Source: a virus
IMG/VR virus record: IMGVR_UViG_3300034021_000868
Location: 1 to 30,265 of that record
Length of the DNA stretch: 30,265 nt
Strand: one strand, 5' to 3'
The notes beneath the pieces were generated by a model. The model was given only the letters and a program-made list of their open reading frames with translations. It did no database searches and was not told the DNA's origin. Made by a program: the position numbers and the translations under genes. This document shows positions 23,716-30,265 of this stretch, piece by piece; the stretch's first letter is position 1; each line of letters starts with the position of its first letter.

Positions 23716-24557
23716 TGTCAAAACCTACAAGTAGACAAGAATTAATTGATTACTGTCTCAGAAGACTGGGAGCACCAGTATTGGAAATTAATATCTCAGA
23801 TGAACAAATTGATGACTTAGTTGATGATGCTCTTCAATACTTTCAAGAAAGACATTTTGATGGTGTTGAAAGAATGTATCTTAAGTACAAGATTACGCAG
23901 GCAGACATAGACAGAGCAACGGCAAAAAATACAAATGGTGTTGGAATTGTAACTACAACTGGAAGTGCTACAATTTCTGGAATAGGAACTACATCATTTA
24001 ATTTTTATGAGAATTCAAATTTTATACAAGTTCCAGACAGTATTATTGGAATTGAAAAAGTATTTAAGTTTGATACTAGTTCAATTTCTGCAGGTATGTT
24101 TAGTATCAAATATCAACTCTTTTTGAATGATTTATACTATTTTAACTCCGTTGAACTCCTACAGTATGCGATGGTAAAAACTTATCTTGAAGACATTGAT
24201 TTTCTTTTATCAACAGATAAACAAATACGTTTTAATAAAAGACAAAATAGATTGTATCTTGATATCGATTGGGCATCAAAAGCAAAGGATACTTTTATTG
24301 TAATTGATTGCTATAGAATTTTAGATCCAAATGATTTCACTAAAGTTTATAATGATAGTTTCTTGAAAAAATATTTAACTGCTTTAATGAAGCGTCAGTG
24401 GGGTCAGAACCTAATTAAATTTAGAGGAGTTAAACTTCCTGGCGGAATTGAACTAAATGGCAGAGAAATCTATGAAGATGCAGAAAGAGAACTAGAAAGC
24501 ATCAGACAGAGAATGTCAATGGATTATGAACTTCCTCCTTACGACTTTATTGGATAA
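23715..24557 (+). CDS. 13: neck protein gp13 (head completion)
   Basis: The protein has 280 residues; T4 gp13 has 309. gp13 joins gp14 at the portal after packaging to form the neck where the tail attaches. Family features are the N-terminal helix SRQELIDYCLRRLGAPVLEI (about residues 6-25), then ISDEQIDDLVDDALQYFQER, DGVERMYLKYKIT, a short Gly/Thr-rich insert (about 75-95) and the segment FKFDTSSISAGMFSIKYQLF with following DLYYFNSVELLQYAMVKTYL. The C-terminus has YLTALMKRQWGQNLIKF, typical of this family. It is placed between the wac-position gene and gp14 with one-base overlaps (TAATG) at both ends, so stoichiometric coupled expression with gp14 is likely. Confidence 0.93.
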   Translation: MSKPTSRQELIDYCLRRLGAPVLEINISDEQIDDLVDDALQYFQERHFDGVERMYLKYKITQADIDRATAKNTNGVGIVTTTGSATISGIGTTSFNFYENSNFIQVPDSIIGIEKVFKFDTSSISAGMFSIKYQLFLNDLYYFNSVELLQYAMVKTYLEDIDFLLSTDKQIRFNKRQNRLYLDIDWASKAKDTFIVIDCYRILDPNDFTKVYNDSFLKKYLTALMKRQWGQNLIKFRGVKLPGGIELNGREIYEDAERELESIRQRMSMDYELPPYDFIG

Positions 24558-25948
24558 TGGCACTTAATCCCTTCTTTCTTCAAGGATCACCAAATGAACA
24601 AAGACTCGTTCAAGAATTAATTAACGAGCAACTGAGGATTTATGGTGTTGAAGTCATTTATATCCCAAGAAAATTTGTTAGAAGAGAAACTATTTTAAGA
24701 GAAATTTCATCATCCAAATTTGATGATAATTATGCTATTGAAGCATATATCAATAATTATGAGGGATATAGTGGTCAGGGAGATCTTCTAACAAAATTTG
24801 GAATGAGTCTAAAAGATGAAGTAAGTTTAGTCATATCAAGAGAAAGATATGAAGATTTTATTGCACCATTTCTTGATGAAAATGATCCTGAAATTGAATT
24901 GGCATCTAGACCCAGAGAGGGTGACTTAGTTTATTTTCCTCTAGGGCAGAGATTGTTTGAAGTTAAATTTGTAGAACACGAACAACCATTTTACCAATTA
25001 GGTAAGTTATATGTTTATGAATTGAAATGTGAACTCTTTGAATATGAGGATGAAGTCATTGATACTTCGATTGATGAAATTGATAAGACAATTCAAAACG
25101 AAGGATATATTACAACGTTAAACCTAATTGGTATTGGTACAACTGCTGCCGCAACCGCAACAATTGGCACTGGATATATCAGACAGATTTATTTAAATAA
25201 TGATGGTTATGGATACACATCAAATCCAACCGTTTCGATATCCACTGCCCCCTCCGGAGGCACAAACGCATCGGCTGTAGCGATTACCTCATCAATCGGG
25301 GGAATCAGGTCTGTGAGTCAGATATTACTCACTAATGCTGGTTCTGGATATACCGTGGCACCAACGATTCAAATTATTGGTGGTGGAGGGACTGGAGCAA
25401 TTGCAACTTGCTCGATAGAAACAGTTGCAAGTGGAATTATAAACTTTAGCATAACAAATCCAGGGTACGGTTATAAAGAAGTTCCTAGTGTTACAATTGT
25501 AGGTTCCGTAGGATCTGGGCAAACTGCGGTTGGAATTGCTTCAATCAATTCTAGTGAGCAAGTATCTACTATTAGGATTTCGAATCCTGGAGTTGGATAT
25601 ACACAATCTCCAACTATTACTATTCAATCTCCATCGATTATTTCTGGATTTGGAACTTTTATATTTAATGAAATCGTTACTGGAACAAGATCTTATACAA
25701 CTGCAAGAGTCAAGTCTTGGGATAAAGATACTAATATGCTCAAGGTATCGATTGTAAGCATTGGAGCAACAATTAAAGGATTCTATCCAGGAGAACTCAT
25801 TGTTGGAGCAGCATCTTCAGCAAGATATGCAGTATCTTCATTTGAAGAATGGGATGAATATGATAAATATAGTGAAAATAAAACAATTGAACTGGAAGCA
25901 GATCAAATTATTGATTTTTCAGAGTCAAATCCATTTGGTACATATTAA
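24557..25948 (+). CDS. 14: neck protein gp14 with a four-fold GxGY repeat insertion
   Basis: The protein has 463 residues against 256 in T4. Residues 1-185 match gp14: YGVEVIYIPRKFVRRE (compare T4 RGVECYYVPREYV), AYINNYEGYSGQGDLLTKFG (T4 [20 protein letters not shown]), EGDLVYFPLGQRLFEVKFVE and PFYQLGK. Residues about 195-365 are an insertion with GxGY at 217, 262, 303 and 345 (spacings 45, 41, 42), each followed by a P-[TS]-[VI]-x-I strand, suggesting a small beta-structured appendage. After the insertion the family tail resumes, ending FSESNPFGTY, parallel to T4 ESSPFDNDF. The neck therefore probably carries an external decoration absent from T4. Bases 25221-25320 in the first repeat are 54% G+C, against 31% at 25561-25680. 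Confidence 0.92.
   Translation: MALNPFFLQGSPNEQRLVQELINEQLRIYGVEVIYIPRKFVRRETILREISSSKFDDNYAIEAYINNYEGYSGQGDLLTKFGMSLKDEVSLVISRERYEDFIAPFLDENDPEIELASRPREGDLVYFPLGQRLFEVKFVEHEQPFYQLGKLYVYELKCELFEYEDEVIDTSIDEIDKTIQNEGYITTLNLIGIGTTAAATATIGTGYIRQIYLNNDGYGYTSNPTVSISTAPSGGTNASAVAITSSIGGIRSVSQILLTNAGSGYTVAPTIQIIGGGGTGAIATCSIETVASGIINFSITNPGYGYKEVPSVTIVGSVGSGQTAVGIASINSSEQVSTIRISNPGVGYTQSPTITIQSPSIISGFGTFIFNEIVTGTRSYTTARVKSWDKDTNMLKVSIVSIGATIKGFYPGELIVGAASSARYAVSSFEEWDEYDKYSENKTIELEADQIIDFSESNPFGTY
25204..25620 (+). repeat. four tandem GxGY protein repeats in gp14
   Basis: Four degenerate units of 41-45 codons share the pattern I-x-x-G-x-GY-x-x-x-P-[TS]-[VI]-x-I followed by a Gly/Ala/Ser-rich turn. 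The DNA copies are diverged and only the protein pattern is conserved, except that the first unit has a distinctly higher GC content. Confidence 0.8.
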
Positions 25949-25986: not shown

Positions 25987-26515
25987 ATGCAAACATATTA
26001 TCATAACCACCATATAATACCAAAACATATGGGAGGTGGTGATGAACCAGATAATATTATTAAATTAACAGTGCAAGAACACGCAGAGGCACACAAAATC
26101 CTTTGGGAAAAGTATGGAAAAAAAAGAGGATGAAATTGCTTGGAGAATGTTAAGTGGGCAAATAACTCCATATGAAGCAACCATAGAAGCAATTAAGAAT
26201 TCTTCAAGAAAAACTTGTATAAAAAGAAACAAAGAAAATAATCCAATGTGGGATCCTAAAAATGTAGATAAAGCGAAGAAAAATATTAAAAAATTTTGGG
26301 ATAATAATCCAGATTTAAAAAAAGAAGTATCAAAGAGATCAAAACTAATAAATACAGGTAAGCAAAGAACTGAAAAACAAAAAGAAAATTATAGAAATGC
26401 TAGATTGGGTAAATATTATCCAACCTCAAAAAGAAAATGCTCTTGTTTGGGATGCAAAAAAGAAACTACAACTCAAGCATTTCATAGAGTTCACTTAAAA
26501 AAATGTTTTGAATAA
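25987..26515 (+). pseudogene. HNH homing endonuclease, frameshifted at an A8 run
   Basis: Translation from ATG 25987 gives MQTYYHNHHIIPKHMGGGDE, with PDNIIKLTVQEHAEAH following. This is a classic HNH beta-beta-alpha-metal site with candidate residues H8/H9, N23 and H32. The frame hits TGA at 26131-26133 after 48 residues. The neighbouring +1 frame continues the family sequence without a break (EDEIAWRMLSGQITPYEATI, residues about 46 on) to TAA at 26513-26515. The switch point is an eight-A run at 26118-26125; with seven A the gene would encode 175 residues. The C-terminus carries a possible zinc-binding CLGCKKE...HRVHLKKC motif (CxxC, HxxH, C). It may be a real inactivating indel, a sequencing error or slippage. 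Free-standing HNH genes that home between phage genes are common in T4-like phages. It was inserted between gp14 and gp15. Confidence 0.82.
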
Positions 26516-27333: not shown

Positions 27334-27756
27334 ATGAAAAATAATTATGATGGTTTAGATGCCTCTTTAAATATAGAGAGCAGCATTGTAGAAGTAGAAA
27401 AAGACAAGGGTGATTTAAATATCACTCCTTTAAAGACTGATGATATTAAAAAAGATTATGAGTACACACGTGCAAATTTATATTCATTGATTGAAAAGGG
27501 GCAAGAGGCAATCAATGGAATTATGGAACTTGCCGGAGAAGGTGGCAGTCCAAGAGCATATGAAGTTGCTGGGCAACTTATTAAGAGTGTTGGAGATGTA
27601 ACAGATAAACTTATTGATTTGCAGAAGAAATTAAAAGATGTGGAAGAAGATACTGTAAAAACAACTAATAATGTTACTAATAATGCGGTGTTTGTTGGTT
27701 CTACATCTGAACTTTCAAAATTACTCAAACAAGGTTTTCTAAATAATAAAGAGTAA
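27334..27756 (+). CDS. 16: terminase small subunit gp16
   Basis: The protein has 140 residues; T4 gp16 has 164. The small terminase forms a ring that recognises concatemeric DNA and stimulates the gp17 ATPase/nuclease. Seen here: DDIKKDYEYTRANLYSLIEK (about residues 36-55), parallel to T4 EDDYGVVRRNMHFQQ; the GGSPRAYEVAGQLIKSVGDV helix (about 70-89), parallel to ADSPRHMEVFATLMGQM; a coiled-coil-like segment DKLIDLQKKLKDVEED; and the C-terminal NNAVFVGSTSELSKLLKQ, matching T4 QNATVFMGSPTELMDEI. It starts six bases after gp15. The large subunit gp17 would be expected close by but is not in the window; three other genes follow instead. Confidence 0.9.
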   Translation: MKNNYDGLDASLNIESSIVEVEKDKGDLNITPLKTDDIKKDYEYTRANLYSLIEKGQEAINGIMELAGEGGSPRAYEVAGQLIKSVGDVTDKLIDLQKKLKDVEEDTVKTTNNVTNNAVFVGSTSELSKLLKQGFLNNKE

Positions 27757-27768
27757 ACATATAGTTTA

Positions 27769-29526
27769 ATGAGTTGGTCTGACAAATATAAAAGATCAAT
27801 AAACTGTGATTCCCCAAAAGGGTTTTCTCAACGTGCTCACTGTGCTGCTCGTAATAAAAGAGCAAAGGGTGAACCAACAAAATCAAAATCACCTTTTAAT
27901 GAAATGCATGAAGTAAAATCTCATAAGTCGGTTGAACAAATTGCAAAGAAACATCGTCTTGAAGTTTCTTTCATAAAGAATCAACTTAAAATGGGAATTC
28001 CTATCGAGCACGAACATACAAAAGATAAAGATCTTGCTACTGATATTGCTCTTCAACATCTTGATGAAATTCCAGATTATTATACTCGGTTGAAAAAAAT
28101 GGAAGCAGATGCTAAAAAGCATCATAAAAAGTTTAAAGATGTAAAGGAAGAAACTACATCAGGTGATGAAGGTCTTCATGATTGGTTTAATAAATCAAAA
28201 TCTTCTGATGGTAAAAAAGGTTGGGTTCAACTTGGTGGTAAGTGGGCAGGTAAACCCTGTGCTCGTCAACCAGGGCAAACTTCTACACCAAAATGTGGTA
28301 GTTCTAAAATGAAAAGATCACTTTCAAAAGATGAAGAAGAAACAGCAAGAAGAAGAAAAAATCGTTTAGATCCAAATCAACCAGAAAAAACTGGCGGTGC
28401 CAAACCAACAAACGTAAGAACAGAAGAAATGGATTTGCAGGAAGTTAAAGACAAACCAGGAAAAAGTAGCGGTAAAAAAGATGCTTGCTACAATAAGGTT
28501 AAGTCTAGATATGATGTTTGGCCAAGTGCATATGCATCGGGAGCACTAGTCAAGTGTCGTAAAGTTGGTGCTGCAAATTGGGGAACAAAATCTGAGGAAA
28601 TGCAAATGATTAGATACTGTCCAAAATGCCAAAAAGACGAAACCCGTGATGAATGCAAATATGGACCAAAATATTGGGACATGTTTTCAATTCCATCAAC
28701 ATTAACACCAAATCAATTAAAATATAATATTGCTACTGTTCACCCAGCAAATGAAGAAAAGGATCACGAGTATTCAATGGCTCGTTCTGAACTTTCCACA
28801 ATCATTGCTGCGGCAAAGAGATTAAAGAAGAAAATGAAAGGTGAAGGTAATATTGAAGCGTGGGTTCAATCAAAAATTACTAAGGCAGCAGATTATATTG
28901 ATGCTGCAGCAGATTATATTGATAGTGGTCAGGGTAAAGTTGATGAAGAATGTTGGGATGGATATGAACAACAAGGAATGAAGAAGAAAGGTAATAAAGT
29001 AGTTCCCAACTGTGTTAAAAAAGAAGGATATTCGAATTGGAGAGATGAATTAGAACAACTTGATGAAAATCCAATAGCTGCTGGTGCTGCTTTGGGAATC
29101 GCTGCTGGGGGTGCTTATATTGCTAAGAAAGCATATGACGCAGCACAACAAATTAAGAAAAATAGAGAAGAAAAGTTAAAACAAGCAGGTCTTCAAATGA
29201 ATTCTTATGAAACAGAGTATGAATTAGTTGAATATTCAAACTGGAGAGAAGAAATTAATTTATCTGAAGACTGGCAATCAGTGAATCGTAAAGATAAGAC
29301 TGATGGTTTAAGTCAAAAAGCAGTAGATGCTTATCGTCGTGAGAATCCTGGTTCAAAACTTCAGACTGCGGTAACTGAAAAGAATCCAACAGGTAAAAGA
29401 GCAGGTCGTCGTAAAAATTTTTGCAGCAGAATGAAAGGAATGAAATCCAAACTCACTTCAGCAAAAACTGCAAGAGATCCAGATTCAAGAATTAACAAAG
29501 CACTTCGTCGTTGGAACTGTAATTAA
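27769..29526 (+). CDS. mosaic protein of small basic/Cys-rich modules (585 aa), function unknown
   Basis: No single function is recognised. Modules in order: residues 1-34, Cys/His basic opening (MSWSDKYKRSINCDSPKGFS); 46-112, HEVKSHKSVEQIAKKH through EHEHT to PDYYTRLKKME (resembles DUF5661-type); 134-182, GLHDWFNKS, GWVQLGGKWAGKPCARQPGQ and a CGSSKMKR end; 234-272, KKDACYNKVKSRYDVWPSAY with CRKVGAANWG (resembles DUF5872-type); 284-296, CPKC and a third Cys; 336-388, ARSELSTIIAAAKRL and an ADYID repeat; 395-415, CWDGYEQQGMKKKG with VVPNC; 434-452, an Ala/Gly-rich hydrophobic helix; 513-585, GLSQKAVDAYRRENPG and RAGRRKNFCSRMKGMKSK ending RINKALRRWNC (resembles DUF6321-type). YSNWRxE occurs twice (421, 489). 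The DUF names are from memory. Such modules recur in marine phage proteins. Its position after gp16 suggests a late, possibly capsid-internal or DNA-binding protein; this is inference. Confidence 0.72.
   Translation: MSWSDKYKRSINCDSPKGFSQRAHCAARNKRAKGEPTKSKSPFNEMHEVKSHKSVEQIAKKHRLEVSFIKNQLKMGIPIEHEHTKDKDLATDIALQHLDEIPDYYTRLKKMEADAKKHHKKFKDVKEETTSGDEGLHDWFNKSKSSDGKKGWVQLGGKWAGKPCARQPGQTSTPKCGSSKMKRSLSKDEEETARRRKNRLDPNQPEKTGGAKPTNVRTEEMDLQEVKDKPGKSSGKKDACYNKVKSRYDVWPSAYASGALVKCRKVGAANWGTKSEEMQMIRYCPKCQKDETRDECKYGPKYWDMFSIPSTLTPNQLKYNIATVHPANEEKDHEYSMARSELSTIIAAAKRLKKKMKGEGNIEAWVQSKITKAADYIDAAADYIDSGQGKVDEECWDGYEQQGMKKKGNKVVPNCVKKEGYSNWRDELEQLDENPIAAGAALGIAAGGAYIAKKAYDAAQQIKKNREEKLKQAGLQMNSYETEYELVEYSNWREEINLSEDWQSVNRKDKTDGLSQKAVDAYRRENPGSKLQTAVTEKNPTGKRAGRRKNFCSRMKGMKSKLTSAKTARDPDSRINKALRRWNCN
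28885..28923 (+). repeat. 18-base direct repeat (AADYID coding)
   Basis: GCAGCAGATTATATTGAT occurs perfectly at 28885-28902 and 28906-28923, separated by one GCT codon, giving AADYID-A-AADYID. Identity at synonymous sites suggests recent duplication or gene conversion within the module. Confidence 0.85.
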
Positions 29527-29527
29527 A

Positions 29528-29836
29528 ATGAAATCATTTCAACAGTTTATTTCAGAGAGCATCAATATTGCCGGAGATTTCAATGGAAATCTTTATATGA
29601 ATGCATCTCAACCAGAGACGGCAAATGAATCTTTTCTTGCTGATGTAGTTTGGCAAGGAAGACTATATCGTATGGAAGTTGAAGGTAGGATGATGGATAA
29701 AAATGAATTAGCAGAGCAACTACAAAGAGAATATCCTGGTGCAATTGTTCATAATATTTACCCAGCAACATCAAATTCTTTAAAAATTAAAGACGCACAA
29801 CGATATAGACCAGAAAGATTATCTTGGAGTGATTGA
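29528..29836 (+). CDS. conserved-looking small protein (102 aa), unknown function
   Basis: The protein has 102 residues and starts one base after the upstream stop (TAAAATG). The opening MKSFQQFISESINIAGDFNG is a pattern shared by many small late proteins of marine T4-like phages (an MKSFxQFIxE head), but I know no assigned function. A central VWQGRLYRMEVEG (about residues 41-53) is followed by a charged helix with MMDKNELAEQLQREYPGA (about 55-72). There is no signal peptide or membrane helix. The N-terminal FQQFISES echoes segments used as cleavable propeptides in some T4-like head proteins, but I see no clear prohead protease site. It lies between the mosaic protein and another structural-looking gene. 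Confidence 0.72.
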   Translation: MKSFQQFISESINIAGDFNGNLYMNASQPETANESFLADVVWQGRLYRMEVEGRMMDKNELAEQLQREYPGAIVHNIYPATSNSLKIKDAQRYRPERLSWSD

Positions 29837-29839
29837 TTT

Positions 29840-30265
29840 ATGGCACAATTTAATAAAAATGAACAGGACTTTCTGAATCAAGAAAGGACCCTTTTTGAAG
29901 TCAATATGATTGCCAATAAGAATGGCGAAGTAGTTACTATTGATAATCCATTTCCAGTCACAGGAACAGTATCAATTTCTACAACATCATCAGCATCTGT
30001 TACATTTCCACCAATAGCAACCGATGCATTTGGTCGTTTAAGAACTTCAAGTCCATTAACACTTTTTGATAGCTCCCACAGATACAAGGACAATAATCTT
30101 TGGAGTGGTTTAGTTGTAGGAACTGGTTCAACAGTTGGATTTGTAACTGCACAAGGTTTAGTCAATATTAGTATAGGAACTACTGCTGGATGTTCTGTGA
30201 TTAGGGAAACCACAAAAGTATTCTCTTATCAACCAGGAAAATCATTACAGGTATTGAATACATTT
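29840..30265 (+). CDS. structural/fibre-like protein, 3' truncated by the window edge
   Basis: The frame opens at ATG 29840, three bases after the upstream stop, and runs open to the last base (142 codons). The N-terminus FNKNEQDFLNQERTLFEVNM, followed by NKNGEVVT and NPFPVTG, and the segment TDAFGRLRTSSPLTLFDSSH (about residues 54-73), then IRETTKVFSYQPGKSLQVLN (about 120-139), form a pattern I recognise from structural proteins of cyanophages and pelagiphages. These often have a beta-rich jelly-roll-like domain after FGRLR. Its function is not established. Attachment to the tail or capsid surface is plausible from the Ser/Thr/Gly-rich composition. A minus-strand ORF in the same place is a shadow. 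Confidence 0.8.
   Translation, partial: MAQFNKNEQDFLNQERTLFEVNMIANKNGEVVTIDNPFPVTGTVSISTTSSASVTFPPIATDAFGRLRTSSPLTLFDSSHRYKDNNLWSGLVVGTGSTVGFVTAQGLVNISIGTTAGCSVIRETTKVFSYQPGKSLQVLNTF

What the first reader, a model, noticed from the sequence alone, without database searches (positions are those of the whole stretch)
27769..29526. Protein assembled from many small marine-phage modules, placed after the small terminase
At least seven short modules, each with its own conserved Cys, Trp or basic core, are strung together, including a CPKC/C zinc-like site, an 18-base duplicated ADYID unit, twin YSNWRxE boxes, and an Ala/Gly-rich hydrophobic helix (434-452) followed by a basic amphipathic segment. 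Its location interrupts the usual 16-17 adjacency. High charge and Cys content suggest nucleic-acid binding or a capsid-packaged effector processed into pieces.
Basis: partly seen in the sequence, partly recalled or inferred. Interest (0 to 1): 0.65.

Follow-up and report, generated by a model that had tools for sequence, protein, structure and literature searches.

The report
Cleavable mosaic internal head protein, cyanophage
This phage gene encodes a string of small, shuffled protein modules that look built to be packed inside the virus head and cut apart there by the phage's own protease, a multi-part version of the internal head proteins known from phage T4.

Summary
Window 27769-29526 is an intact 585-aa ORF after gp16 in a T4-like cyanophage (Kyanoviridae), made of about nine modules. 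It is not new as a gene: it belongs to the T4-GC119 / phrog_727 family, with DUF5661 and DUF6321 inside, and S-SRM01 has a full-length homologue (57%). The gp16-gp17 gap is a known hotspot. No function was known.

Best reading: an internal head polyprotein, packed into the prohead and cut by gp21. Support: (1) [LI]xE, the T4 gp21 motif, sits at module borders far above chance; (2) its modules also occur behind T4-type capsid-targeting sequences (CTS; T4 MKTYQEFIAE, here MKSFQQFISE); (3) a domain fused inside some orthologues replaces the downstream stand-alone CTS ORF (14 fused, 53 separate, 0 both); (4) module-sharing proteins were found in S-CREM2 and S-SCSM1 virions by mass spectrometry.

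By-product: the S-CREM2 virion kinase, SAM hydrolase and cytidylyltransferase carry N-terminal T4-like CTSs, as does the S-SCSM1 NMNAT.

Against: this protein has no N-terminal CTS, some proteomes miss module proteins, and DNA binding is unproven. Cleavage and packaging of this protein are inferred, not shown.

The parts
27769..29526 (+). Mosaic ORF, 585 aa (T4-GC119 / phrog_727 family): proposed internal head polyprotein
27769..27912 (+). Module M1, residues 1-48 (WSDKYKRSINC..PKGFSQRAHC); occurs behind a CTS-like N-terminus and gp23-arm mimic in S-SM2 SSM2_108
27913..28149 (+). Module M2 = Pfam DUF5661 (residues 56-112), ends at VKE|ETTSG
28150..28443 (+). Module M3 (LHDWF..GWVQLGG..CARQPGQTSTPKC), ends at LQE|V (residue 225)
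28444..28602 (+). Module M4 (DACYNKVKSRYDVWPSAYASGALVKCRKVGAANWG); in 365 phage records and in virion-detected S-CREM2 ORF160
28603..28947 (+). Modules M5 (RYCPKC..C) + M6 (helical, double AADYID), ends at VDE|E (residue 393); both occur in a separate ORF in contig L207
28948..29067 (+). CW module (CWDGYEQQGMKKKGNKVVPNC) plus first YSNWRDE box, ends at LDE|N (residue 433)
29068..29232 (+). Ala/Gly-rich helical segment, residues 434-488, ends at LVE|Y
29233..29268 (+). Second box YSNWREEINLSE|D, residues 489-500; five orthologues have KTFxxFME here instead
29269..29523 (+). DUF6321 module, residues 501-585, pI 10.8; stand-alone next to head genes in several phages; follows a CTS in S-SZBM1_192
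29528..29836 (+). 102-aa ORF (phrog_1742) with T4-type CTS MKSFQQFISE|S; its domain is fused inside other orthologues of the 585-aa protein
29528..29557 (+). Capsid-targeting-like sequence MKSFQQFISE (compare T4 ipII/ipIII MKTYQEFIAE)
27334..27756 (+). gp16 terminase small subunit (context)
29840..30265 (+). phrog_1645 virion structural protein, cut by window end (context)

Best explanation
The ORF encodes an internal head polyprotein. As in T4, it would join the prohead core, here probably through internal CTS-like boxes (YSNWRxE / KTFxxFxE) or core contacts. The gp21-type prohead protease would then cut after [LI]xE motifs in the disordered linkers, leaving small, mostly basic, Cys/Trp-containing modules in the head with the DNA, some of which may be ejected into the host. 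Shown here: the modular architecture, border motifs, shared modules on CTS-bearing proteins, the fused/separate swap, and virion detection of module-sharing relatives (published proteomes). Inferred: packaging, cleavage and ejection of this particular protein, and what each module does in the head or host.
For: Border motif: before M4, 24 of 24 distinct contexts hold [LI]xE (2.2 expected) although residues vary (LQE, LTE, LNE, INE, ITE, IQE); before DUF6321, 23 of 35 (8.0 expected); with [LIVMF]xE: M3 20/20 (6.2), CW 25/28 (9.2). [LI]xE is depleted inside modules, 36 vs 48 expected, and mildly enriched in linkers, 119 vs 101. The capsid protein of S-SRM01 has the same kind of site, FLSE|ASPTN. 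CTS link: T4 ipII/ipIII MKTYQEFIAE; next window ORF MKSFQQFISE; S-SZBM1_192 MKTFKQYITE + DUF6321; SSM2_108 MKTLKQFLKE + M1. N-terminal CTS pattern: 1-5 per cyanophage genome vs 0.004-0.02 expected. In 5 of 36 representatives KTFxxFME takes the place of the YSNWR box before DUF6321; Glu500 is invariant. Fused domain vs separate CTS ORF: 14 / 53 / 0 both, HMM E down to 1e-5. Virions: S-CREM2 ORF160 (M3+CW+M4, 7 peptides) and ORF137 (DUF6321, 4 peptides) (PMC10665884); S-SCSM1 gp029 with most of the modules is annotated 'virion protein'. AF2: cores separated by low-confidence linkers that hold most of the sites.
Against: The protein has no N-terminal CTS. Internal CTS-like boxes are not enriched genome-wide. 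S-SZBM1 proteomics did not list ORFs 191, 192 or 194, and S-SCSM1 gp030, the 102-aa homologue, is not labelled virion. PMC3037559 calls T4-GC119 hypothetical although S-SM1 virions were analysed. Several border sites fit only a relaxed [VM]xE motif, and there is no site between M5 and M6. Orthologues are related, so shuffle p-values are optimistic.
Confidence: 0.6

Rival explanations
1. It is a prohead core (scaffold) component in the manner of T4 gp67/gp68: needed for head assembly, shredded by gp21 and mostly lost, with no role after packaging.
For: Border cleavage motifs; absence of module proteins from the S-SZBM1 virion list; S-SRM01 has no annotated gp67/gp68, only 56-aa and 176-aa ORFs between gp20 and gp21.
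Against: Module-sharing proteins are found in S-CREM2 and S-SCSM1 virions; lineage-specific module swapping is unlike a scaffold.
Confidence: 0.2
2. It is a tail or neck structural accessory: the neighbourhood is tail, neck and terminase genes, and modules serve as surface or fibre-attachment pieces.
For: Lies among gp13-gp15, tail-fibre-like and YadA-like virion genes.
Against: DUF6321 stands alone next to capsid, portal or scaffold genes in unrelated phages; CTS and gp21 sites belong to heads; highly basic pieces.
Confidence: 0.08
3. It is a non-virion host-takeover or DNA-packaging protein, and the [LI]xE motifs are ordinary linker composition.
For: LxE count in this one protein is near chance (5 seen, 3.9 expected); internal boxes not enriched.
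Against: Position-specific enrichment at borders in orthologues; virion detection of relatives; fused/separate swap with a CTS ORF.
Confidence: 0.12

Closest known systems
T4-GC119 / phrog_727 cyanophage gene family (S-SRM01 QPX48171, S-SCSM1 gp029)
   Same: Full-length homology (57% to S-SRM01), same place between gp16 and gp17, shared modules.
   Different: Module set and order vary between phages; published records give no mechanism (hypothetical, structural or virion protein).
T4 internal head proteins IPI, IPII, IPIII with capsid-targeting sequence
   Same: Module partners carry T4-like CTS at the same residue positions (4, 7, 10); basic; gp21-type sites.
   Different: Multi-module polyprotein, no N-terminal CTS on this ORF; no sequence relation to the T4 IPs was seen.
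phiKZ / SPN3US processed inner-head proteins
   Same: Head proteins cut by a gp21-like protease after a short motif ending in Glu (PMC9026906).
   Different: No sequence relation was seen or tested directly; much smaller modules here; membership not tested.
Stand-alone DUF6321 proteins of cyanopodoviruses and pelagiphages
   Same: Same module, about 82 aa; lies 3' of the capsid gene in P-SCSP1q and HTVC104P.
   Different: There a separate gene; here the C-terminal bead of a larger protein.

Membership tests
T4-GC119 / phrog_727 family | Sequence match over the protein and gp16-gp17 location | tested here: met
   phrog_727 E 3.7e-112; S-SRM01 full length 57%; synteny
Pfam DUF5661 | Score over gathering cut-off | tested here: met
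   56.9 vs 27 bits
Pfam DUF6321 | Score over gathering cut-off | tested here: met
   52.3 vs 28.5 bits
T4 internal head proteins (IP) | N-terminal 10-residue CTS | tested here: not met
   P0001 starts MSWSDKYKRS; the next ORF does have MKSFQQFISE
T4 internal head proteins (IP) | Cleavage by gp21 at L/I-x-E | tested here: inconclusive
   Sites present and enriched at borders; cleavage itself cannot be tested
T4 internal head proteins (IP) | Present inside the mature head | not testable with these tools
   Relatives sharing modules detected in virions; this protein has no proteomics
Zinc-binding domain | Four metal ligands | tested here: inconclusive
   Only three invariant Cys in the CPKC site; low-confidence model
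DNA-binding protein | Known DNA-binding fold | tested here: inconclusive
   Weak HTH-like matches for DUF5661, Z about 2; no PDB match for DUF6321

The most novel reading that the evidence does not exclude
Kyanoviridae use a general head-loading code (an N-terminal CTS, internal CTS-like boxes, or a mimic of the mature capsid-protein N-arm) to load enzymes and cleavable strings of mini-proteins into the head, and the gp16-gp17 hotspot is where this cargo string is reshuffled.
Probability: 0.3. Interest if true: 0.8.

Novelty: new variant of a known kind. Interest (0 to 1): 0.6.

Why it matters
Cyanophage virions contain enzymes (kinase, NMNAT/cytidylyltransferase, SAM hydrolase) whose packaging the published proteome papers could not explain. 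T4-like targeting sequences on them, and on the partners of this mosaic protein, give a simple testable rule for what goes into the head. It would turn a family of 'hypothetical' genes found in about 500 phage records into predicted head cargo with mapped cut sites.

Tried and rejected
NCBIfam gave no match above cut-off and PDB sequence search only chance hits. A scan of bacterial genomes with P0001 found no relatives, so no host origin is visible. Internal CTS-like motifs genome-wide are not above shuffled expectation, so the YSNWR box was kept as an inference only. The whole-protein AF2 model is poor (pLDDT 53), so its fold search is not evidence. The DUF6321 model is fair (pLDDT 82) but has no PDB match; viral matches are other DUF6321 proteins. 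The P-SCSP1u cryo-EM paper does not mention a protein that could be placed as DUF6321. No paper found in the library links cyanophages with capsid targeting; subscription journals were not searchable.

Full report
What is there. Window 27769-29526 is an intact 585-aa ORF between gp16 (27334-27756) and a 102-aa ORF (29528-29836) in a T4-like cyanophage structural cluster. It matches phrog_727 (E 3.7e-112) and contains Pfam DUF5661 (56-112) and DUF6321 (508-582). Five hundred and four phage records hold a match, but only two cover 80% or more of the protein in one place, both records of S-SRM01, at 57% identity. In S-SRM01 the gene also follows gp16. The family is T4-GC119, called hypothetical in PMC3037559, which also lists gp16-gp17 as an insertion hotspot. 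So the gene and its odd location are known; the mechanism was not.

Modules. Eighty orthologues from viral contigs and S-SRM01 reduce to 36 representatives. Nine units recur: M1, DUF5661, M3, M4, M5-M6, CW, an Ala/Gly helix or other filler, a YSNWR box, and DUF6321. They change order and are swapped: CW can precede M5 or follow M6, and several unrelated fillers occupy the Ala/Gly position. Units occur elsewhere alone or in other company: DUF6321 as a protein of about 82 aa in most of the viral contigs examined, in some beside capsid, portal, virion-structural or scaffold genes; DUF5661-like + KTFKEFRDFSES + DUF6321 in L207, whose next ORF holds M6 and M5; M3 + CW + M4 in S-CREM2 ORF160.

Cleavage motif. 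T4 gp21 cuts after L/I-x-E (PMC9026906). At the M3/M4 border all 24 distinct contexts keep [LI]xE against 2.2 expected, with changing letters; before DUF6321 it is 23 of 35 against 8.0; relaxed motifs are enriched before M3, M5, CW and the fused phrog_1742-like domain, but not before M6 or the TIEDADG unit. The motif is depleted inside modules. In the AF2 model, poor overall, the sites at 225, 393, 433, 488 and 500 lie in or at the edge of low-confidence linkers. In this one protein alone the LxE count is near chance (5 vs 3.9); it is position and conservation that carry the argument. Orthologues share ancestry, so the shuffle p-values are optimistic.

Targeting sequences. T4 ipII and ipIII start MKTYQEFIAE; by PMC9026906 residues 4 and 7 matter for targeting and 8 and 10 for processing. 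The next window ORF starts MKSFQQFISE. A strict pattern with these positions is found at 1-5 N-termini per cyanophage genome against 0.004-0.02 expected. S-SZBM1_192 joins it to DUF6321, and S-SM2 SSM2_108 has a similar start before M1. In S-CREM2 the five strict carriers (SAM hydrolase, ORF13, APH-like kinase, ORF136, cytidylyltransferase) are all in the published virion proteome (chance 0.00065); across three proteomes it is 6 of 9, expected 1.8, p 0.0025. The pattern was sharpened after seeing S-CREM2, so these figures are not fully independent. The S-SCSM1 NMNAT, a virion protein, starts MKSFLQFLKE.

Link to this protein. The 585-aa ORF has no N-terminal CTS. Its YSNWR boxes fit the Y-x-x-[FW]-x-x-E spacing, and in 5 of 36 representatives KTFxxFME stands where the second box is. 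The phrog_1742 domain of the CTS ORF is fused inside other orthologues, and then the separate ORF is absent: 14 fused, 53 separate, 0 both, 6 neither by an automatic rule that misses some longer starts. S-SCSM1, more distant, is an exception with both.

Virion evidence. S-CREM2 ORF160 and ORF137 (DUF6321) are in the virion table with 7 and 4 peptides; their sequences are. S-SCSM1 gp029, with M3, M4, CW, M5, the fused domain and DUF6321, is annotated 'virion protein'; the paper reports 45 virion proteins by mass spectrometry (PMC9602691), and that this label stems from it is my reading of the record. S-SZBM1 proteomics lacks ORFs 191, 192 and 194.

Verdict. An internal head polyprotein, cut by gp21, is the best reading (0.6). 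That it works like a T4 internal protein is inferred from motifs and company; membership in the T4 IP family is not claimed, since the N-terminal CTS is absent. DNA binding remains open.

Noticed in passing
S-CREM2 OR473000 ORFs 6, 13, 14, 136, 154 (loci L093, L088): Five virion-detected proteins, including SAM hydrolase, APH-like kinase and cytidylyltransferase, start with a T4-type capsid-targeting sequence; ORF12 (Cas9-like) has a similar RFASFMAE stretch near its start.
   Followed up: yes
S-CREM2 ORF160, S-SCSM1 93082-93304 (gp275), S-B64 gp085 (L090), S-SM2 SSM2_108 (L003): N-terminal segment mimics the mature N-arm of the phage's own major capsid protein (GFTGAAAPxGPxAGYDPLM; scores 95 and 83 vs shuffled maxima 44 and 39), which would explain 'major head protein' labels.
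   Followed up: partly
window 26114-26515: 133-aa ORF between gp14 and gp15 with no clear family; S-SRM01 has an HNHc-annotated ORF at the same place, so a homing endonuclease is possible.
   Followed up: no
window 24557-25948: gp14-like head closure protein carries a repetitive insertion (about residues 190-400) that also matches large virion and baseplate families.
   Followed up: no
T4 NC_000866 near 19130 (minus), 54 aa: A further short T4 ORF starts MKTFKEFIKEDMVAG, a CTS-like N-terminus besides ipII and ipIII.
   Followed up: no
S-SRM01 L002 9879-10289: An endonuclease VII-like ORF is inserted between the polyprotein gene and the CTS ORF, where the window has none.
   Followed up: no
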